From NCBI RefSeq assembly GCF_014897585.1, contig NZ_JABUXW010000012.1, positions 62,001-126,000 of the forward strand: DNA of 64,000 bases. Reading direction: 5' to 3'. The notes beneath the pieces were generated by a model that was given only the letters and a program-made list of their open reading frames with translations, was not told where the DNA came from and ran no database searches. This document shows, piece after piece, positions 33,707 through 48,052 of the stretch. The first letter of the stretch is position 1. Each line of letters opens with the position of its first letter. Source of the stretch: Brachybacterium tyrofermentans (GTDB taxonomy: Bacteria > Actinomycetota > Actinomycetes > Actinomycetales > Dermabacteraceae). A program made the translations under genes and the position numbers.

Positions 33707-34302
33707 CGTTGCCACTCCTTCGCAGTGGTCGAAAGCCAGAACAGGCACGGACGGAGCACAGCGTATCGGTTCTCGCGGCCTCTCGCCGACACACCGGGGC
33801 TGATCCTTGACTTCCGTTCTTCGCGCACCATCCCCTGCGCGGGGATCCGACGCCGATCCGGGGTCGTCACCGTCCTCGTCCCCGGCTCCTCATCGCTCCC
33901 CAGCACTCAGGAATCACACGATCTCGTCGCCGTCTTCGGCACCCCGCCTCCTCCACATCCCCGTCGAGCAAAGAACTACAGTCCTCTTCTTCACGGCTGT
34001 TAATACAGTGGATAACTACGATCGATGCAGGTCACCACGTATGAGGCTCACGTGGATGGATCGTTGATCGATCTGTGGTCCTCGTGGGTGGGCTGTGCAC
34101 GTCCGCGCTGTCCCGAGCAGTTCATGTCATTCCTCGGTGCACATCGGCTCGTGCGTGGGAGCTTGTCATTCCACATTGTCCACAGAGTTATCCACATTTG
34201 GGGAGAACTGCGCTCTGACCTGCCGTGTTCTTCTCATGATGACGGAAGGCCCAGCGTCGGTCCTTCTGGTGCCCGTCACGACGCCGCGGTTGCGGCGCCG
34301 GG
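33707..34302. other. oriC: dnaA-dnaN intergenic region, candidate oriC
   Basis: A 596-bp gene-free stretch in the usual actinobacterial oriC position. DnaA boxes seen: TTGTCCACA (34176-34184) and TTATCCACA (34188-34196) are perfect, and AGTGGATAA (34007-34015) is one mismatch off in the other strand. An AT-richer patch (33980-34020) lies near the last. Box number is low for an actinobacterial origin; a denser cluster lies at 45.7-45.9 kb. Confidence 0.6.
34282..34297 (-). terminator. Possible dnaA terminator
   Basis: CGCCGC (34282-34287) and GCGGCG (34292-34297) form a 6-bp GC stem with a 4-base loop, directly after the dnaA stop. It is short, so low confidence. Confidence 0.35.
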
Positions 34303-39398: not shown

Positions 39399-40064
39399 GT
39401 GCTTCCCCTTCCTGATTCCCTGCGCCCGTCGGCGGAGCGTCTGTTCGCAGATCGCCTCGGCCTGGCGGAGCGCTTCGCGAGCATGCTCGCCGAGCAGGGT
39501 CCTGAGCGTGGTCTCATCGGTCCTCGTGAGGTCGAGCGGCTCTGGGGACGGCACATCCTCAACTGCGCCCTCATGGCCGACGCCATCGATCCGTCGGCAC
39601 GCACTCTCGCCGACATCGGATCCGGCGCCGGTCTGCCGGGTGTGGTCCTGGCGATCGCCCGCCCCGACCTGACGGTGACGCTCGTGGAGACCATGCAGCG
39701 ACGGGCCAGCTGGCTCGAGGAGGTCGACGCCGAGCTCGGCCTGGGCCTCGAGGTGGTGCGTGCCCGCGCCGAGGATCTGCATGGTGAGCGATCGTTCGAT
39801 GTCGTGACCGCTCGTGCGGTGGCAGCGCTGGACAAGCTCGCACGCTGGACCCTCCCGCTGGTGGCCGATGGCGGGGAGCTGCTGGCCATGAAGGGCGGAT
39901 CCGCCGCCGAGGAGGTCGACAAGGCGTCCAAGGCCCTGGCGACGCTGGGCGGGATCGATCCGCGCATTGAGCAGTACGGGGTCGGCGAGGTTGAGGTTCC
40001 CACTACAGTGGTCCAAGTGCGTCGCCGTGCACAGGGGACCAGGAAGGGAGAGACACGTGGCTGA
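39399..40064 (+). CDS. rsmG: 16S rRNA (guanine-N7) methyltransferase RsmG
   Basis: 221 residues from a GTG at 39399. The SAM-binding motif is LADIGSGAGLPGVVLAIARP, preceded by EVERLWGRHILNCALMAD, both typical of RsmG. It methylates G527 of 16S rRNA. It starts 8 bp after jag stops and overlaps the parA start by 8 bp. Its loss confers low-level streptomycin resistance in known species. Confidence 0.95.
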   Translation: MLPLPDSLRPSAERLFADRLGLAERFASMLAEQGPERGLIGPREVERLWGRHILNCALMADAIDPSARTLADIGSGAGLPGVVLAIARPDLTVTLVETMQRRASWLEEVDAELGLGLEVVRARAEDLHGERSFDVVTARAVAALDKLARWTLPLVADGGELLAMKGGSAAEEVDKASKALATLGGIDPRIEQYGVGEVEVPTTVVQVRRRAQGTRKGETRG

Positions 40065-40980
40065 ACAGCACGAAGATTCCTCCCCAGGACGAGGGTCGAT
40101 GGAGGACACTCCGCTGATGCGCGAGCTCGCCAGAGATCACGCACGCCGCAAGAAGCTCGATGGTGTCCGGTTCGGTGCTCCGGAGTCGACCCGGATCATC
40201 ACCATCGCCAATCAGAAGGGCGGAGTCGGCAAGACGTCGACGACCGTGAACATGGCAGCAGCGCTGTCCATGGGCGGATTGCAGGTGCTGGTGATCGATG
40301 CGGACCCGCAGGGGAACACCTCCACAGCCCTGGACATCGAGCATCATGCCGAGGTCCCGAGCATGTACGAGGTGCTCGTGGAGTCCGCTCCACTGGCGGA
40401 CGTCGTCCAGGATGTCCCGGACATGGCGCGGCTGCAGTGCGCGCCGGCCACGATCAACCTCTCCGGTGCCGAAATCGAGCTGGTCTCCCTGGTGGCGCGT
40501 GAGAACCGACTGCGCAATGCGATCCGGGACTACCTCGAGCACCGTGAGTCCGAGGGGCTGCCCCGTCTGGACTATGTGCTGATCGACTGCCCGCCGTCGC
40601 TGGGCCTGCTGACCGTGAACGCACTGGTCGCGGCCCGCGAGGTCCTGATCCCGATCCAGGCCGAGTACTACGCGCTCGAGGGTCTGAGCCTGCTGCTGAA
40701 CAACATCGATCTGATCCGCCAGCATCTCAACCCCGAGCTGGTGGTCTCCTCGATCATGCTGACCATGTACGACGCCCGAACCCGGCTCGCCGCACAGGTC
40801 GCACAGGACGTCCGGGAGCATTTCCCGGAGCAGACCCTGGAGACGACGATCCCCCGTTCGGTGCGTATCTCGGAAGCCCCGAGCTACGGGCAGACTGTGC
40901 TCACGTACGATCCGGGCTCCAGCGGCGCCCTCGCCTACCGGGCCGCCGCCCACGAACTCACGATCCGACCCGCCCCATGA
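40057..40980 (+). CDS. parA: Chromosome-partitioning ATPase ParA
   Basis: 307 residues from a GTG at 40057 with GGGAG upstream. The deviant Walker A is IITIANQKGGVGKTSTTVN. VLVIDADPQGNTSTAL is the A' motif, YVLIDCPPSLGLLT is Walker B, and SEAPSYGQTV is near the end. ParA dimers bind the nucleoid with ATP and pull ParB-parS complexes apart. The gene begins inside the rsmG end and is followed 88 bp later by parB. A short near-palindrome in that gap may be an operator. Confidence 0.96.
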   Translation: MAEQHEDSSPGRGSMEDTPLMRELARDHARRKKLDGVRFGAPESTRIITIANQKGGVGKTSTTVNMAAALSMGGLQVLVIDADPQGNTSTALDIEHHAEVPSMYEVLVESAPLADVVQDVPDMARLQCAPATINLSGAEIELVSLVARENRLRNAIRDYLEHRESEGLPRLDYVLIDCPPSLGLLTVNALVAAREVLIPIQAEYYALEGLSLLLNNIDLIRQHLNPELVVSSIMLTMYDARTRLAAQVAQDVREHFPEQTLETTIPRSVRISEAPSYGQTVLTYDPGSSGALAYRAAAHELTIRPAP

Positions 40981-41068: not shown

Positions 41069-43051
41069 ATGACGCAGAAGCGAGGACTCGGTCGAGGACT
41101 CGGCGCCCTGATCCCGGGCGCTGGTTCGAGCCCCGCTCCGGAGCAGGAGCTGCGCACCCGTGCGCAGCGGGCGTCTGCCGCTGACCAGGAACCATCGAGC
41201 CCTCGTCCGGTGGACATGTTCTTCTCCGGGGAGAAGGCCTCCGAGGACCAGGACTACCCGCAGCGGGAGCGGGGCACCCGCACCGATCTGGCGGGCGAGA
41301 TGGCACGCGCCGCCGCTCAGCGCCGCGGCCGAGGAGCATCCACCCGGTCGACGACCTCCCGTGGTGCTGCGACATCCGCGGAGGGCCCGACCGAGACCGC
41401 TGAGGCCCCGACGACGGCGAAGCCGAGCCGCACGCGCTCCACGGGCGCGGCAGGCACGTCCTCCTCGACGTCGTCGACCACGAAGTCGTCGACCACGAAG
41501 CCCTCCACGGCGAAGTCCTCCACGGTGAAGGCCTCCGGTGCGAAGTCGTCTGCCTCGACGTCCTCCGCCCCGAAATCCTCGGCCTCGAAGCCCACCTCGG
41601 GGAAGAAGGACCCGGCGAAGCCCACCACGTCGAAGCGCGCTTCCGCGACGTCGACCCCGTCGAAGGCTGCTTCCGAGAACGTCACTGCCACGACGACGGC
41701 TCCTGCGAAGACCGCCCCCACTGCGTCTGCCTCGACAGAGGCGGCGCCCCCGAAGACCGCTGCCCTCACGACCACTCCAGCGAAGACTGCCCCCGAGAAG
41801 GCCGCCCCCGACAAGGCCGCCTCCGCGACGGCCGAAGCGGCCGCTGCCGGCGACGCTGCGGAGCAGCCCGCCTCGGTGCCGACCGCTTCCTCAGGGAGCG
41901 CGCCCGCACCGGTTGCCGCTGGCGGGACCGACTCCGTCTCGGCCCCGGCGGAATCGACACCGGCAGAGCCGACACCGGCAGGGACGACACCAGCAGAGAC
42001 GGCACCGGTGGAGCTGGCACCAGCGGAGCCGACGGCGACCGCTCTGTCCTCCGGCGACGACGCCCTCGCTGCGAAGGCCGCGTCGGACGATGTCGTCGCA
42101 GGCAGCGCTGCTGCCGAGGTCGAGGCCGACCAGCCGGCGTCGGCCCCTTCAGACGAAGCCCCTTCGGACGAGCTGCCGAGCGATGTTCACGGTCGTCAGG
42201 AGCTGGTGAGCGTCCCGGGCGCCGAGTTCGCCGAGATCCCGATCCACGAGATCCGCGAGAACCCGCGGAACCCGCGCACGATGTTCGATGACGACGAGCT
42301 CGACGAGCTCGCCTTCTCGCTCCGCGAGGTCGGCGTCCTGCAGCCCGTCGTCGTGCGGCCGATTCCCGTCACAGACGAGGGTGAATCCTTCGAGCTGGTC
42401 ATGGGTGAGCGGCGCTGGCGGGCAGCCCGCCGTGCCGAGCTGACGGCGATCCCCGCGATCATCCGCGAGACCAGCGACGATGACCTGCTCCGGGATGCTC
42501 TGCTCGAGAACCTTCACCGTGCGCAGCTGAATCCGCTGGAAGAGGCCAACGCCTATCAGCAGCTGCTCGAGGACTTCGGCTGCACGCAGGACGAGCTCGG
42601 TGAGCGGATCGGTCGTTCACGCCCGCAGATCACCAATACGCTTCGACTGCTCCGACTGCCCGCGCTCGTCCAGCGACGACTCGCCAGCGGCGCTCTGAGT
42701 GCAGGCCACGCCCGCGCACTTCTCTCCCTGGACGATCCCGCCTTGATGGAGGAGCTCGCCCAGCGGATCGTGAGCGAAGGCCTGTCTGTGCGCGCGGTCG
42801 AGCGACTGGTCGCTCGGGGAGGCCAGCAGGCCCCCGCGCGGACGATCCGCCGTACGACCTACGATCCCCACGTCGTGGATCTGACCAGTCGACTCTCGAA
42901 CCGGCTGGAGACCCCGGTTCGTATCGACGTGGGCAAGCGTAAGGGCAAGATCACTCTGGAGTTCACGAATCTCGAGGATCTGGACCGTCTGATCGACTCC
43001 ATGGGTCTGGCCGTTCCGGCGACGGGTACTGACGAGGACGTGGCGGACTGA
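41069..43051 (+). CDS. parB: Chromosome-partitioning CTPase ParB with long low-complexity insert
   Basis: 660 residues, about twice the usual length. The N-terminus is the ParB start (MTQKRGLGRGLGALIPGAGS). Residues about 95-375 are a Ser/Thr/Ala/Lys/Pro-rich stretch with repeats such as PAKTAP and TTKSST, turning acidic at its end. The conserved ParB core starts near 381: FAEIPIHEIRENPRNPRTMF, then VMGERRWRAARRAEL (about 446) and LLENLHRAQLNPLEEANAY (about 480), the CTP-binding motifs. The parS-reading HTH is ELGERIGRSRPQITNTLRLL, and the C-terminal dimer domain follows. All key motifs are intact, so it should be active. A parS-like array lies right after it. Confidence 0.95.
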   Translation: MTQKRGLGRGLGALIPGAGSSPAPEQELRTRAQRASAADQEPSSPRPVDMFFSGEKASEDQDYPQRERGTRTDLAGEMARAAAQRRGRGASTRSTTSRGAATSAEGPTETAEAPTTAKPSRTRSTGAAGTSSSTSSTTKSSTTKPSTAKSSTVKASGAKSSASTSSAPKSSASKPTSGKKDPAKPTTSKRASATSTPSKAASENVTATTTAPAKTAPTASASTEAAPPKTAALTTTPAKTAPEKAAPDKAASATAEAAAAGDAAEQPASVPTASSGSAPAPVAAGGTDSVSAPAESTPAEPTPAGTTPAETAPVELAPAEPTATALSSGDDALAAKAASDDVVAGSAAAEVEADQPASAPSDEAPSDELPSDVHGRQELVSVPGAEFAEIPIHEIRENPRNPRTMFDDDELDELAFSLREVGVLQPVVVRPIPVTDEGESFELVMGERRWRAARRAELTAIPAIIRETSDDDLLRDALLENLHRAQLNPLEEANAYQQLLEDFGCTQDELGERIGRSRPQITNTLRLLRLPALVQRRLASGALSAGHARALLSLDDPALMEELAQRIVSEGLSVRAVERLVARGGQQAPARTIRRTTYDPHVVDLTSRLSNRLETPVRIDVGKRKGKITLEFTNLEDLDRLIDSMGLAVPATGTDEDVAD

Positions 43052-43624: not shown

Positions 43625-45577
43625 TGTTTGCCGTGAAACTCATCCGGCGGTCCGATCGGTGACTGGCCTGGGCTATAGGCGCAGACGTTCGACGTGAAAC
43701 GCTGCTGTCGACCGGGCGGGGTACCCAATCCACAACTGTTGCGGTCTTCTGCTGTTGGCACGCGGCGGCGAGCCTCACGCGCGGCGGACCACCCTTTGCG
43801 CCTGTCCTTGCCGCACGGTCTGTCCGTTGTAGAGTCTGTGGTTTCGCGTGAAACAGGGGCGCATGGTATGAAGGCGCTTAGCGCGGCGCGGTCGGTATGT
43901 CACGCGATGTTTCACGTCGAACGGCACCGGGGGCCAGCCGTGGACCTGCTGGGCTCGATCGGTCGTGACGCGCCCGCGCCTGGCACGGGAGGGATGCCGA
44001 GACCGAAGCACCTCCGTCAGGGAATGGATCGGGCCAGCAGTCTGCTGACTTGCGCTCCATCACGTGGAACCCGCTCACATATGGCGTGAGGAGCAGATGT
44101 TCAGGGTTCCGCATACAGTTTCACGTGGATCCTAACGTTTGGCAACGATGGAGCACGTCTCGGCACCCGACCTTCTCAGCTTTCCCTGCGATTCCGAGGG
44201 CGCCACTAGTCTTCTATCGGCTTCCGGCGGGACCCATGCCGTAGCGCGACGGCTCTCTTGTACTCGATGGATCGCCGCAACTGAATCCGTTTCACGGGAA
44301 ACATGTGGGGGCAACCTGCAACTTTTGCCAGACAGGTTCGCCCGGCTTTGCCTGCTATTTGACTCCGTCCTCAGGTTTCCCGTGAAACAGCATGCCTAAA
44401 CCCTTCGTGCGGTTGTGAGGAGTTCGAGCTTTCTGTCTGGAACCTCTGCCCACGGCCGGCACATGCTCGACGTGTACAACGAGGTCACTTCCGTAGCTAG
44501 GCGCTTGCGTTACACGTGGAACATGGCCGGTGAGTCCCGGATCGGGGACATGTTGGCGGAGCTGGAAGAGCCAACATGATGGACTGGATCTCTCTCACAG
44601 CGATTCGGTCGCGCATGGAACCCCTTCATCGTTGGCGATGCTGGCGAGTCGCCTTCATGGTGGCGTACGGGCTCTCGGATCGCGGCAGATCATCCGGGAG
44701 GCATTAGCGAACAGGGTGCACGTGAAACATCCCGTAGTGGAAGAACGTTGAGAGGTCCGTATGTCTAGTTCGGCACCGGTACCTCGTGTTTCACGGGGAA
44801 CATCGCGCTGGTTGACCCATCATCGTTCTGGGGTTCGGACCGCGCCTCGCGGAGTCAGTTGCTGGGTGAGACCGACAAGCTGCTACGACGCGCAGCGCAG
44901 CGATCTCGTGACGTTTCTCGTGAAACACTGAACTCTGGCAGGACGGTGCATTCTTGGAGCTGTCAGTACTCAGCGTGCAGTGCGTGATCTCTCTCTCGCG
45001 CCCCATGCGGGGGACATTGCCCGCCGACCAGTCTCCATGCAGCACGGTTGAGTAGCGACGGGTTCACGTGAAACGCCATGAACTCGGTGAGGCGACCCGG
45101 GATGCTCGACAGCGCGGTGCGCACGGCACAAAGTACGTCGACGCCACATCCCGACAGTCCTCCAAGGGTCAACTTTTATGTGGATGGGACGGCGACGTGG
45201 CTATGTTTGCCGTGAAACTCTCGTCTAGGCGCAGCGCCTTCGCCGCCACCATGCGATGGGATTCGCGCAACGGGTACCGGGACCGAGATTGTGAGGTTCA
45301 CAAATTGGCCCATCCACCCACGCCCCGACTGAGCGCGCCCGCAAGAACCCGCGTCCCTGCTCGACCGGATCTGGCTTCACGCGAAACGTGGCGTCCGCCA
45401 GAGATCGAACCGGATGTGGTCAGTTGCCCTCTTGTGTATGAACGACACGTTGACAACCAGTGACCGAGAAGGATCCCACGCTCTCCCGAGTCACTGGATT
45501 GACCGAGCCACTCGTGACGATGGCCGACGGCTGCCCAGGGCTCTGGGACTGCTCGAGCCGCGTTCGCACGTGAACCG
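43625..45577. repeat. parS: Array of about sixteen parS-like sites
   Basis: Compared with the consensus TGTTTCACGTGAAACA, 16-mers start at 43625, 43686, 43840, 43908, 44056, 44117, 44288, 44374, 44508, 44714, 44787, 44912, 45060, 45204, 45373 and 45562. Most match 12-14 of 16 positions (43840, 44288, 44374, 44787 and 44912 have 14; 44056 and 45562 are weakest). None is perfect. Spacing is 61-206 bp. Two copies (43625 and 45204) are identical, TGTTTGCCGTGAAACT. This looks like the chromosomal centromere bound by the adjacent ParB. Confidence 0.8.
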
Positions 45578-45686
45578 TGCCGCGGCCTAGGCATGGTCCG
45601 TCGAGAGCACGACGAGCACCAGAGAAGGGTGCATTCACTGGAGGGCGGTGCACGGGATTCAGCGTTATGCACACTGTGCGAAACCT

Positions 45687-45918
45687 TGTGGAAAACCGAA
45701 AGTCGCCATGTGACTGGCATCACGCCTACGGGCACGTCGACAACAAGCACTCGACCGTGTGTCATCACTCCCTGATGACATAATCGCAGGTCAAGCAGAT
45801 ATTCAGTGAAGCCACCGTGGTGCGATCACTTCACGGTTATCCACATTCTGCTGTGGACAACCTTGTGGATGGAGCCGCTCAACGATGTGGACGTGGGTGT
45901 GGATAACCTTGTGGACAA
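45687..45918. other. DnaA-box cluster, possible second or main origin element
   Basis: Perfect boxes: TTATCCACA (45837-45845), TGTGGACAA (45852-45860), TGTGGATAA (45898-45906) and TGTGGACAA (45910-45918). Weaker ones: TGTGGAAAA (45687-45695), TGTGGATGG (45864-45872) and TGTGGACGT (45886-45894). Four perfect boxes in 82 bp is denser than in the dnaA-dnaN gap. It could be part of oriC or a DnaA-titrating/reactivating site. Confidence 0.7.
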
Positions 45919-46818: not shown

Positions 46819-47943
46819 TCAGCGTCCGACGGTCGCAGCGTCGATGACGACCGTCTCGGTCTGCTCGGTCTGCTCGGTCTGCTCGGTCTGCTCGGACTTC
46901 GCCAGTTCGTCGGCCAGTGCCGCCTGGTCGGTCAGCCAGCGCTCGGCATCCAGAGCCGCCTGGCAGCCGGTTCCCGCCGCGGTGATCGCCTGGCGGTAGG
47001 TGTGGTCGACGACGTCGCCCGCTGCGAACACACCGGGCACCGAGGTGTAGGTGGAACGCCCTTCGCAGAGGATGTACCCCTCGTCGTCGAGGTCGACCTT
47101 CCCCCGCAGCAGATCGGTGCGCGGCAGGTGTCCGATCGCCTCGAACACGGCGGACGTCGGCATCACGCGCTCCTCGCCGGTGACGGTGTCGCGCAGCGTC
47201 ACGGAGTCGACCTTCTCGGCGCCGTTGATGCTGACGACCTCGCTGTTCCACGCGAAGGTCAGCTTCGGGTCTGCCTGGGCCCGACGAGCCATGATCTTCG
47301 AGGCGCGCAGCTCGTTGCGGCGATGCACCAGAGTCACGGACTTGCCGAAGCGCGTCAGGAACGTGGCCTCCTCCACGGCGCTGTCGCCACCGCCGATGAC
47401 CACGATGTCCTGGTCCTTGAAGAAGAAGCCGTCGCAGGTGGCGCACCAGCTGACGCCCTTGCCCGAGAGCTCCTTCTCGCCGTCGACACCGAGCTCGCGG
47501 TATGCGGATCCGGTGGACAGGATGATCGACTTGGCGCGGTACACGGTGCCGTCGTCCAGCGTGACCGTCTTGATCTCGCCCTCGAGCTGAAGATCCACGG
47601 CATCGTCGTAGATGACCTCCGCACCGAACCGTTCTGCCTGCTCCTGCATCGTGGCCATGAGCTCGGGCCCCTGGATCCCGTTCGCGAAGCCCGGGAAGTT
47701 CTCGACATCGGTGGTCGTCATGAGCGCGCCGCCGGCATCGAGCGCACCGGCGATGACGATCGGCTTCATCTCGGCACGCGCCGTGTAGATCGCGGCGGTG
47801 TACCCGGCGGGTCCGGAGCCGACGATGACGACCTCGTGGATGGTCTCGTCACCGGAGATCTCGGGAGCGGTGGCCGGGGCTGCGGCCGGGGCGGACGCCG
47901 TGGGGGCGCCGAGGATGTTCAGGGCCTGAATGGGCTGCGACAT
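46819..47943 (-). CDS. trxB: Thioredoxin reductase
   Basis: 374 residues from an ATG at 47943. FAD site [20 protein letters not shown], redox pair WCATCDGFF (Cys167 and Cys170), NADPH site [20 protein letters not shown], and the final FAD motif [20 protein letters not shown]. It reduces thioredoxin with NADPH in the cytoplasm. The N-terminus has about 35 extra residues; the C-terminus has a repeated TEQ tail ([13 protein letters not shown]) encoded by a 9-bp tandem repeat at 46854-46895. It lies upstream of the Cys-less thioredoxin-like gene and downstream of the membrane genes, in one transcription unit. Confidence 0.95.
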
Positions 47944-48052
47944 GTCGGGGATGTCCTTCCGTGGGTTTCGTCGTGGGTCGTCGGCAGTCAGCGGGAGGAC
48001 CGCGACCAAGTATGGGCTATGGCGATGGGAGTGTCGGAGGACGGAACGAGGC

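What the first reader, a model, noticed from the sequence alone, without database searches (positions are those of the whole stretch)
43625..45577. Array of about sixteen imperfect parS-like sites, none matching consensus
Sequence shows sixteen 16-mers related to TGTTTCACGTGAAACA between parB and the trx operon, every 61-206 bp (mean about 130), with about fourteen matching at least 12 of 16 positions and none perfect. Most other bacteria use a few near-perfect parS sites scattered around the origin. A dense block of weak sites could load ParB cooperatively or reflect shifted ParB specificity. The lack of any perfect site is itself striking, as if high-affinity sites are avoided.
Basis: partly seen in the sequence, partly recalled or inferred. 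Interest (0 to 1): 0.8.

Follow-up and report, generated by a model that had tools for sequence, protein, structure and literature searches.

The report
Centromere array avoiding perfect ParB sites
These bacteria appear to mark their chromosome for segregation with a row of about fourteen evenly spaced, slightly flawed binding sites, and across the genus evolution seems to have removed nearly every perfect site, as if the strongest grip on the DNA were harmful.

Summary
The array is real. The window is Brachybacterium. Fourteen parS sites (core GTTTCACGTGAAAC, at most 2 mismatches) lie at 43625-45388, between parB and the convergent trx side; two further claimed sites are marginal. No match with up to 3 of 16 mismatches exists elsewhere in the 4.6-Mb genome. 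All 34 Brachybacterium parB loci examined carry such an array, evenly spaced in 32 of 32 tested.

The missing perfect site is not chance. In 33 arrays (G007 pooled apart) there are 1 perfect, 217 one-mismatch and 196 two-mismatch cores; an independent-position model predicts 60 perfect. The same model fits nine sister-genus arrays (55 seen, 57 predicted). One single change, A7C, occurs 85 times against one perfect core. Too-strong (perfect) and too-weak (A7C in both halves) sites are both rare, as expected if affinity is held in a window. Hairpin, restriction and specificity-shift explanations fail or lack support. Exceptions: G007 (four perfect sites) and G020 (one).

Best reading: an ordinary ParABS centromere whose sites are selected against maximal ParB affinity. 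The reason (capping ParB/SMC loading) is inferred; no binding data exist. New variant of a known kind.

The parts
43625..45388 (.). parS array: 14 sites with <=2 mismatches to the core GTTTCACGTGAAAC, none perfect, mean spacing 134 bp; candidate chromosomal centromere
43625..43640 (.). site 1 TGTTTGCCGTGAAACT, 2 core mismatches
43686..43701 (.). site 2 CGTTCGACGTGAAACG, 2 core mismatches
43840..43855 (.). site 3 GGTTTCGCGTGAAACA, 1 core mismatch
43908..43923 (.). site 4 TGTTTCACGTCGAACG, 2 core mismatches
44117..44132 (.). site 5 AGTTTCACGTGGATCC, 2 core mismatches
44288..44303 (.). site 6 CGTTTCACGGGAAACA, 1 core mismatch
44374..44389 (.). site 7 GGTTTCCCGTGAAACA, 1 core mismatch
44508..44523 (.). 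site 8 CGTTACACGTGGAACA, 2 core mismatches
44714..44729 (.). site 9 GGGTGCACGTGAAACA, 2 core mismatches
44787..44802 (.). site 10 TGTTTCACGGGGAACA, 2 core mismatches
44912..44927 (.). site 11 CGTTTCTCGTGAAACA, 1 core mismatch
45060..45075 (.). site 12 GGGTTCACGTGAAACG, 1 core mismatch
45204..45219 (.). site 13 TGTTTGCCGTGAAACT, 2 core mismatches
45373..45388 (.). site 14 GGCTTCACGCGAAACG, 2 core mismatches
44056..44071 (.). marginal parS-like 16-mer (11/16); status undecided
45562..45577 (.). marginal parS-like 16-mer (10/16); status undecided
41069..43051 (+). parB, 660 aa: N-terminal GLGRGL motif, low-complexity linker of about 360 aa, ParB_N (386-483), HTH_ParB (486-583), ParB_C (599-643)
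39967..40980 (+). parA (start codon uncertain)
45665..45918 (.). DnaA-box cluster on the far flank of the array (6 boxes with <=1 mismatch, 4 exact); the densest such cluster found lies at or just beyond this end of the array in 33 of 34 genus loci
46819..48009 (-). thioredoxin-reductase-like gene (Pyr_redox_2), on the convergent right-hand side

Best explanation
The array is the chromosomal parS centromere of a standard ParABS system. In Brachybacterium each site is kept at an intermediate ParB affinity: changes that make a site as strong as the perfect core are selected against, and so are changes that make it too weak. Spacing is kept near 140 bp while the spacer sequence drifts. The centromere is thus about 14 moderate ParB loading sites in place of a few strong ones. 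Inferred, not shown: the cap on affinity limits ParB (and through it SMC) loading at any one point and lets bound ParB leave its site quickly, so that load is spread over ~1.8 kb. Shown here from sequence: site number, even spacing, depletion of perfect cores, persistence of sites in the clade that could be tested, unchanged specificity residues. Not shown: ParB binding, affinities, any SMC effect.
For: The genome's only <=3/16-mismatch parS matches lie here, beside parB. All 34 genus parB loci examined carry the array. Perfect core absent genome-wide in 36 of 38 genus genomes (33 of the 35 that have any <=1-mismatch match), present in 9 of 9 genomes of five sister genera. 33 arrays: 1/217/196/37 cores with 0/1/2/3 mismatches; an independent-position fit predicts 60 perfect. 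An affinity-window fit (three extra parameters) reaches logL -2185.6, against -2308.1 for independence, -2224.4 for forbidding the perfect core only and -2214.8 for free weights per mismatch class. In the sister genera none of these helps (-364.5, -365.2, -364.6, -364.0): 57 predicted, 55 seen. A7C single: 85, in 30 of 33 genomes, vs perfect 1, where neutral exchange predicts 24 (11 with a fourfold C bias). A7C in both halves: 1; T5C single 11 but T5C in both halves 18. G011/G013 share 11 sites at 53% spacer identity; 7 cores changed and none of 22 states is perfect, while in the sister-genus pair G045/G046 6 of 11 shared sites toggle between perfect and one mismatch. Spacing CV 0.46 vs 0.89 for random placement, 32 of 32 genomes.
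Against: No binding or in vivo data. Affinity is inferred from substitutions, with T5C taken as mild and A7C as stronger because sister genera carry 26 T5C and 4 A7C singles. The window model still misfits single forms (it predicts 22.6 for one A7C strand form where 46 are seen, and 14.3 for one T5C form where 4 are seen). G007, nested in the genus with support 100, has four perfect sites and G020 has one, so the rule is not absolute. A simpler estimate (n1 squared over n2) overshoots in the sister genera (93 vs 55), so only the fitted model is used. Persistence of sites could be judged in few pairs: at about 48% spacer identity the other Brachybacterium pairs share only 2-7 aligned sites, and G011/G035 share 8. 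Lack of a perfect core also occurs in 25 sampled genomes of other genera, so the cause may not be specific to this genus. Pseudomonas data say a strong site is needed for segregation there (PMC4368675 passages).
Confidence: 0.6

Rival explanations
1. Redundancy and drift: with 14 sites selection on each is weak, so they decay; perfect cores are missing only because there are many more imperfect sequences than one perfect one.
For: Cores vary greatly (65 distinct forms with <=2 mismatches). Site number rises from other actinobacteria to this family, and degeneracy rises again from sister genera to this genus.
Against: Comparing single sequences removes the counting argument: the A7C single occurs 85 times and the perfect core once; neutral exchange predicts 24, or 11 with a fourfold mutational bias to C. 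Sister genera with similar site numbers keep 55 perfect ones. In the G011/G013/G035 clade sites persist while spacers diverge strongly, so there was time to reach the perfect form.
Confidence: 0.12
2. Shifted specificity: Brachybacterium ParB prefers another sequence, so the canonical core is simply not its best site.
For: A7C is the base that distinguishes NBS from parS at position 6 of the half-site (PMC7383237 passages; mapping of positions mine), and it is the commonest change here.
Against: No new consensus: A7C is frequent in one half and nearly absent in both (85 vs 1), which two equal half-sites bound by a homodimer cannot give independently. Residues aligned by me to Caulobacter R173, T179 and G201 are R, T and G, as in relatives that use perfect sites; the residue aligned to 184 is K or R in the actinobacteria compared.
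Confidence: 0.1
3. Asymmetry is what is selected: ParB should meet one good and one poor half-site, so that loading or clamp closure is polar.
For: 308 of 413 imperfect sites keep one perfect half. In two f11/g26 genomes (G213, G136) 17 of 18 sites have exactly one T5C half and the 18th one other change; G229 has 5 of 5 A7C singles, all facing the same way.
Against: Symmetric T5C/T5C sites occur 18 times in Brachybacterium, several of them in G013 and G035, and 3 times in two other g26 genomes, which also have 1-2 perfect sites. Facing is not strongly biased in Brachybacterium (166 vs 142) and its trend along the array is weak (p=0.025). In the other families the sites may lie in coding sequence, which could fix their facing; not tested.
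Confidence: 0.1
4. A second factor that recognises the perfect core (a competing ParB-like protein of a plasmid or integrated element, or a nuclease) makes perfect sites costly.
For: The genome has four further PF02195 matches on other contigs; of the two whose proteins I scanned, one also carries an HTH_ParB domain.
Against: Avoidance spans the genus, while these extra genes were looked for in this genome only. A factor with a short motif is excluded: 46 sites keep TTCACGTGAA and 142 keep CACGTG.
Confidence: 0.06

Closest known systems
Chromosomal ParABS centromere (ParB/Spo0J with parS)
   Same: parA-parB pair beside the sites, ParB_N + HTH_ParB + ParB_C, parS-type specificity residues, sites confined to one region near dnaA (dnaA named from the ORF translation, not from a family search).
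   Different: No perfect core; ~14 intermediate sites in one 1.8-kb block with even spacing.
Multi-site parS clusters of Streptomyces and other actinobacteria
   Same: Many sites near the origin (Streptomyces cluster known from listings and a reference title only; sister genera seen).
   Different: In the 30 loci outside the family that I scanned, 97 of 114 cores with <=2 mismatches are perfect; sister genera mix perfect and imperfect ones that fit independence.
Pseudomonas aeruginosa graded parS set
   Same: Sites of graded affinity; double-mismatch sites with one intact arm bind better than sites with both arms changed (PMC4368675 passages).
   Different: There two sites are perfect and the strong ones are necessary and sufficient; weak ones cannot replace them. 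This Brachybacterium genome has only imperfect sites.
Noc/NBS nucleoid occlusion system
   Same: NBS has C at the position where Brachybacterium sites most often change (A7C).
   Different: NBS is read through Q173/R201-type residues, which this ParB lacks; the protein scores below the NCBIfam Noc cut-off (203.8 vs 315).

Membership tests
Chromosomal ParABS | ParB with N-terminal CTPase domain, HTH and dimerisation domain | tested here: met
   PF02195, PF17762 and PF23552 all over cut-off; residues 37-233 of the 309-aa query align to 6t1f ParB. CTPase activity itself untested
Chromosomal ParABS | Adjacent ParA ATPase gene | tested here: met
   AAA_31 E 2e-54 for the preceding gene
Chromosomal ParABS | parS-like palindromic sites beside parAB and nowhere else | tested here: met
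   11 of 11 genome-wide <=3/16-mismatch hits in the array
Chromosomal ParABS | At least one perfect or near-perfect high-affinity parS | tested here: not met
   No perfect core in the genome. This is a usual property, not a strict definition; five sites have a single core mismatch and whether they bind strongly is untested
Chromosomal ParABS | ParB binds the sites and spreads | not testable with these tools
   needs EMSA/ChIP-seq
Noc/NBS | NBS-type specificity residues (Q173, R201 equivalents) | tested here: not met
   R and G at the aligned positions
Noc/NBS | NCBIfam TIGR04285 score over cut-off | tested here: not met
   203.8 bits, cut-off 315

The most novel reading that the evidence does not exclude
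Bacterial centromere sites can be under stabilising selection for an intermediate ParB affinity, with the strongest possible site counter-selected. Brachybacterium shows it genus-wide with a dense even array; exactly-one-mismatch sites in other Actinomycetales families would be convergent cases with a different set-point, and G007 a reversal of it.
Probability: 0.5. Interest if true: 0.82.

Novelty: new variant of a known kind. Interest (0 to 1): 0.7.

Why it matters
parS is usually treated as better the closer it is to consensus. A genus that keeps a dense centromere yet almost never holds a perfect site suggests that too much affinity has a cost. That makes an open question directly testable: how strong should a ParB loading site be, and does the number of sites trade off against their strength? 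G007, a probable natural revertant nested in the genus, and sister genera with the same array but perfect sites give ready-made comparisons.

Tried and rejected
Chance: rejected. Perfect sites elsewhere in the genome: none. Perfect palindromes or hairpins avoided as such: rejected, 19 of 413 imperfect sites are perfect 14-bp palindromes of another sequence. Restriction site or short motif inside the core avoided: rejected, since CACGTG is kept in 142 and TTCACGTGAA in 46 of 413 sites. Young sites not yet perfected: disfavoured in the one clade where it could be tested (G011/G013/G035); other pairs are too diverged to tell. Helical phasing of the spacing: none at the six periods tried, 10.0-11.0 bp. 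Facing of the poorer half along the array: weak, p=0.025, not used. GC skew over 200 kb of two genomes (G003 in 3 contigs, G024 in 1) did not resolve the origin. A quadratic fitness fit ended in a poor optimum and was replaced by the window model. Linker length against fraction of perfect sites (rho -0.53) and, within Brachybacterium, against mean mismatches (rho 0.46, p=0.008) is confounded by ancestry and contradicted by G042, so it is a lead only. A ParB-only tree was poorly resolved and replaced by a five-gene tree; a first five-gene tree used a misframed parA query and was redone.

The three-mismatch class (37) contains some chance matches (1.4 expected per 20 shuffled arrays). Of the 25 other-genus genomes without a perfect core I looked at the sites of 12.

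Full report
What is there. The window lies in a Brachybacterium genome: its ParB is 79-94% identical over the best segment to 19 Brachybacterium loci and 77% to one Dermabacter locus among GTDB genomes. Downstream of parA and parB (41069-43051) and ahead of the convergent thioredoxin-reductase-like gene lie 14 sites with one or two mismatches to the parS core GTTTCACGTGAAAC, from 43625 to 45388, none perfect. The two remaining claimed sites are marginal. Shuffles give a mean of 0.03 hits with <=3/16 mismatches per window, against 11 seen. The whole genome has these 11 and no other.

Conservation. All 19 Brachybacterium loci have 10-16 sites with >=12/16 matches within 5 kb downstream of parB. 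Fetching the parB loci of the genus (34 of 38 genomes had one at E 1e-60) shows the array in all 34 (split in two in G017). Spacers are hardly alignable between species: of 427 sites in the 34 genomes, only the sister pair G013/G035 gave flank matches above my threshold. Spacing is nevertheless regulated: median 138 bp, mean CV 0.46 against 0.89 for uniform placement, lower than the random median in 32 of 32 genomes tested, without helical phasing. Sites near the edges are somewhat weaker (rho 0.24).

The perfect core is missing. Positions 1 and 16 of the 16-mer carry 0.05 bit, so the motif is the 14-bp core. An exact whole-genome search finds it in 2 of 38 Brachybacterium genomes (G007 four times, G020 once) and in 9 of 9 genomes of five sister genera, 3-9 times each. 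Three of the 38 are incomplete and have no <=1-mismatch match at all, so the fair count is 33 of 35 without a perfect site. In 33 arrays (G007 apart) there are 1, 217, 196 and 37 cores with 0, 1, 2 and 3 mismatches; in nine sister-genus arrays 55, 54, 13 and 3. In 30 loci outside the family, 97 of 114 cores with <=2 mismatches are perfect.

Not unique as a bare fact. In a sample of 248 genomes of the order, 196 have a perfect core and 236 have at least a one-mismatch match. So 40 have imperfect matches only: 15 Brachybacterium and 25 of other genera.

Is it selection? A model with independent positions, symmetric halves and spacer base composition predicts 60 perfect cores in Brachybacterium and 57 in the sister genera; 1 and 55 are seen. 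Forbidding the perfect core alone raises the log likelihood from -2308.1 to -2224.4, free weights per mismatch class give -2214.8, and a penalty for being too strong, set on an additive score (three extra parameters), reaches -2185.6. In the sister genera none helps (-365.2, -364.6, -364.0, -364.5). The clearest comparison is one sequence with another: the A7C single is found 85 times and the perfect core once. If the two were equally fit, exchange at the spacer base composition predicts 24 perfect cores, and 11 even with a fourfold bias to C (P 7e-10 and 3e-4). These P values treat sites as independent; the unalignable flanks make that reasonable but not exact. A simpler estimator (n1 squared over n2) gives 94 here but also overshoots in the sister genera (93 vs 55), so I do not rely on it.

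The pattern is graded. In sister genera the commonest single is T5C (26), which I take as a mild change; A7C is rare there (4). In Brachybacterium T5C alone is rare (11), T5C in both halves common (18), A7C alone very common (85), T5C with A7C common (64), A7C in both halves nearly absent (1). Too strong and too weak are both avoided. That the mild/strong order reflects ParB affinity is inference.

Time was available, in the one clade that tells. G013 and G035 (80% spacer identity, 13 and 12 sites) share 12; G011 and G013 (53%) share 11, of which 7 changed core, and none of the 22 states is perfect; G011 and G035 share 8. In the sister genus, G045 and G046 (52%) share 11 sites, of which 6 toggle between perfect and one mismatch. 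Seven other Brachybacterium pairs at about 48% identity share 2-7 aligned sites and cannot decide.

What it is not. Palindromes as such are allowed (19 of 413 imperfect sites), and CACGTG (142) and TTCACGTGAA (46) are kept, which speaks against hairpins, restriction sites or any short motif. A specificity shift is unlikely: the residues I aligned to Caulobacter R173, T179 and G201 are unchanged (passages of PMC7383237; alignment; comparison), and a shift would act on both halves alike.

Evolution. In a five-gene tree (47 taxa, 1419 columns) the genus is monophyletic (support 90) and G007 is nested with four perfect-free species (support 100), so its four perfect sites are most simply a regain. 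G007 also has the shortest ParB linker of those measured in the genus (260 aa against 299-487). The link between linker length and site quality is only a lead, because G042 has a 418-aa linker and seven perfect sites.

Other lineages. In two genomes of another family (f11, g26: G213, G136) 17 of 18 sites have exactly one T5C half and the 18th one other change, with no perfect and no double-T5C site. Five other g26 genomes have 0-3 perfect sites, and two of them have double-T5C sites (three in all; G071 was not scanned for doubles); G229 (f9) has five A7C singles and nothing else. Other genomes without a perfect core (G153, G270) have scattered matches, not a cluster. These lineages may include parallel cases, but species are few and related, and coding constraint was not tested.

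Mechanism. Published work fits an affinity cap but does not prove it: ParB must leave parS to spread (PMC8367383 passages), parS acts as a catalyst of clamp closure through both half-sites (PMC8494293 passages), and in B. subtilis a larger SMC pool with all parS sites present hampers chromosome folding (PMC8357415 passages). My reading is that many moderate sites spread ParB and SMC loading. Against it, P. aeruginosa needs a strong site (PMC4368675 passages).

In print. A search for Brachybacterium with parS and ParB listed two papers; the passages of one (PMC4255298) do not treat Brachybacterium parS, and the other was not opened. A search for phrases such as imperfect, suboptimal or low-affinity parS listed ten papers, most of them off topic; of the three on parS, passages of one (PMC8367383) were seen and two (PMC8299390, PMC9040568) were not opened. 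Searches turned up no title on selection against perfect parS. That is no proof of absence, as subscription papers are not held.

Noticed in passing
window 45665-45918: A DnaA-box cluster (6 boxes with <=1 mismatch, 4 exact) flanks the array; in 33 of 34 genus loci and 6 of 9 sister-genus loci the densest such cluster lies at or just beyond this end of the array. The dnaA-dnaN gap (exact boxes at 34176 and 34188) was not always inside the fetched loci. It could be the origin or a DnaA sink.
   Followed up: partly
window 41126-42208: ParB carries a low-complexity linker of about 360 aa between the N-terminal GLGRGL motif and the CTPase domain (395 aa by the motif-to-motif measure); 299-487 by that measure in the other genus members measured except G007 (260), and 194-255 in six of seven sister-genus loci measured (418 in G042).
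   Followed up: partly
L129, L130, L158, L157 (G213, G136, G148, G229): parS clusters of other Actinomycetales families made mostly of sites with one changed half, mostly facing one way.
   Followed up: partly
L112 (G017): The array is split by about 2.7 kb without sites; 14 sites in all, none perfect.
   Followed up: no
[not shown]
   Followed up: no
G000:C21:38329, C23:59267 and 59722, C56:2126 (L153-L156): Four more ParB_N (PF02195) matches on other contigs of this genome; of the two proteins scanned (L154, L156), L154 also carries an HTH_ParB domain.
   Followed up: partly
G153 and G270 (f4, g22): No perfect core, but 15 and 19 one-mismatch matches scattered over several contigs, unlike a centromere cluster.
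   Followed up: no
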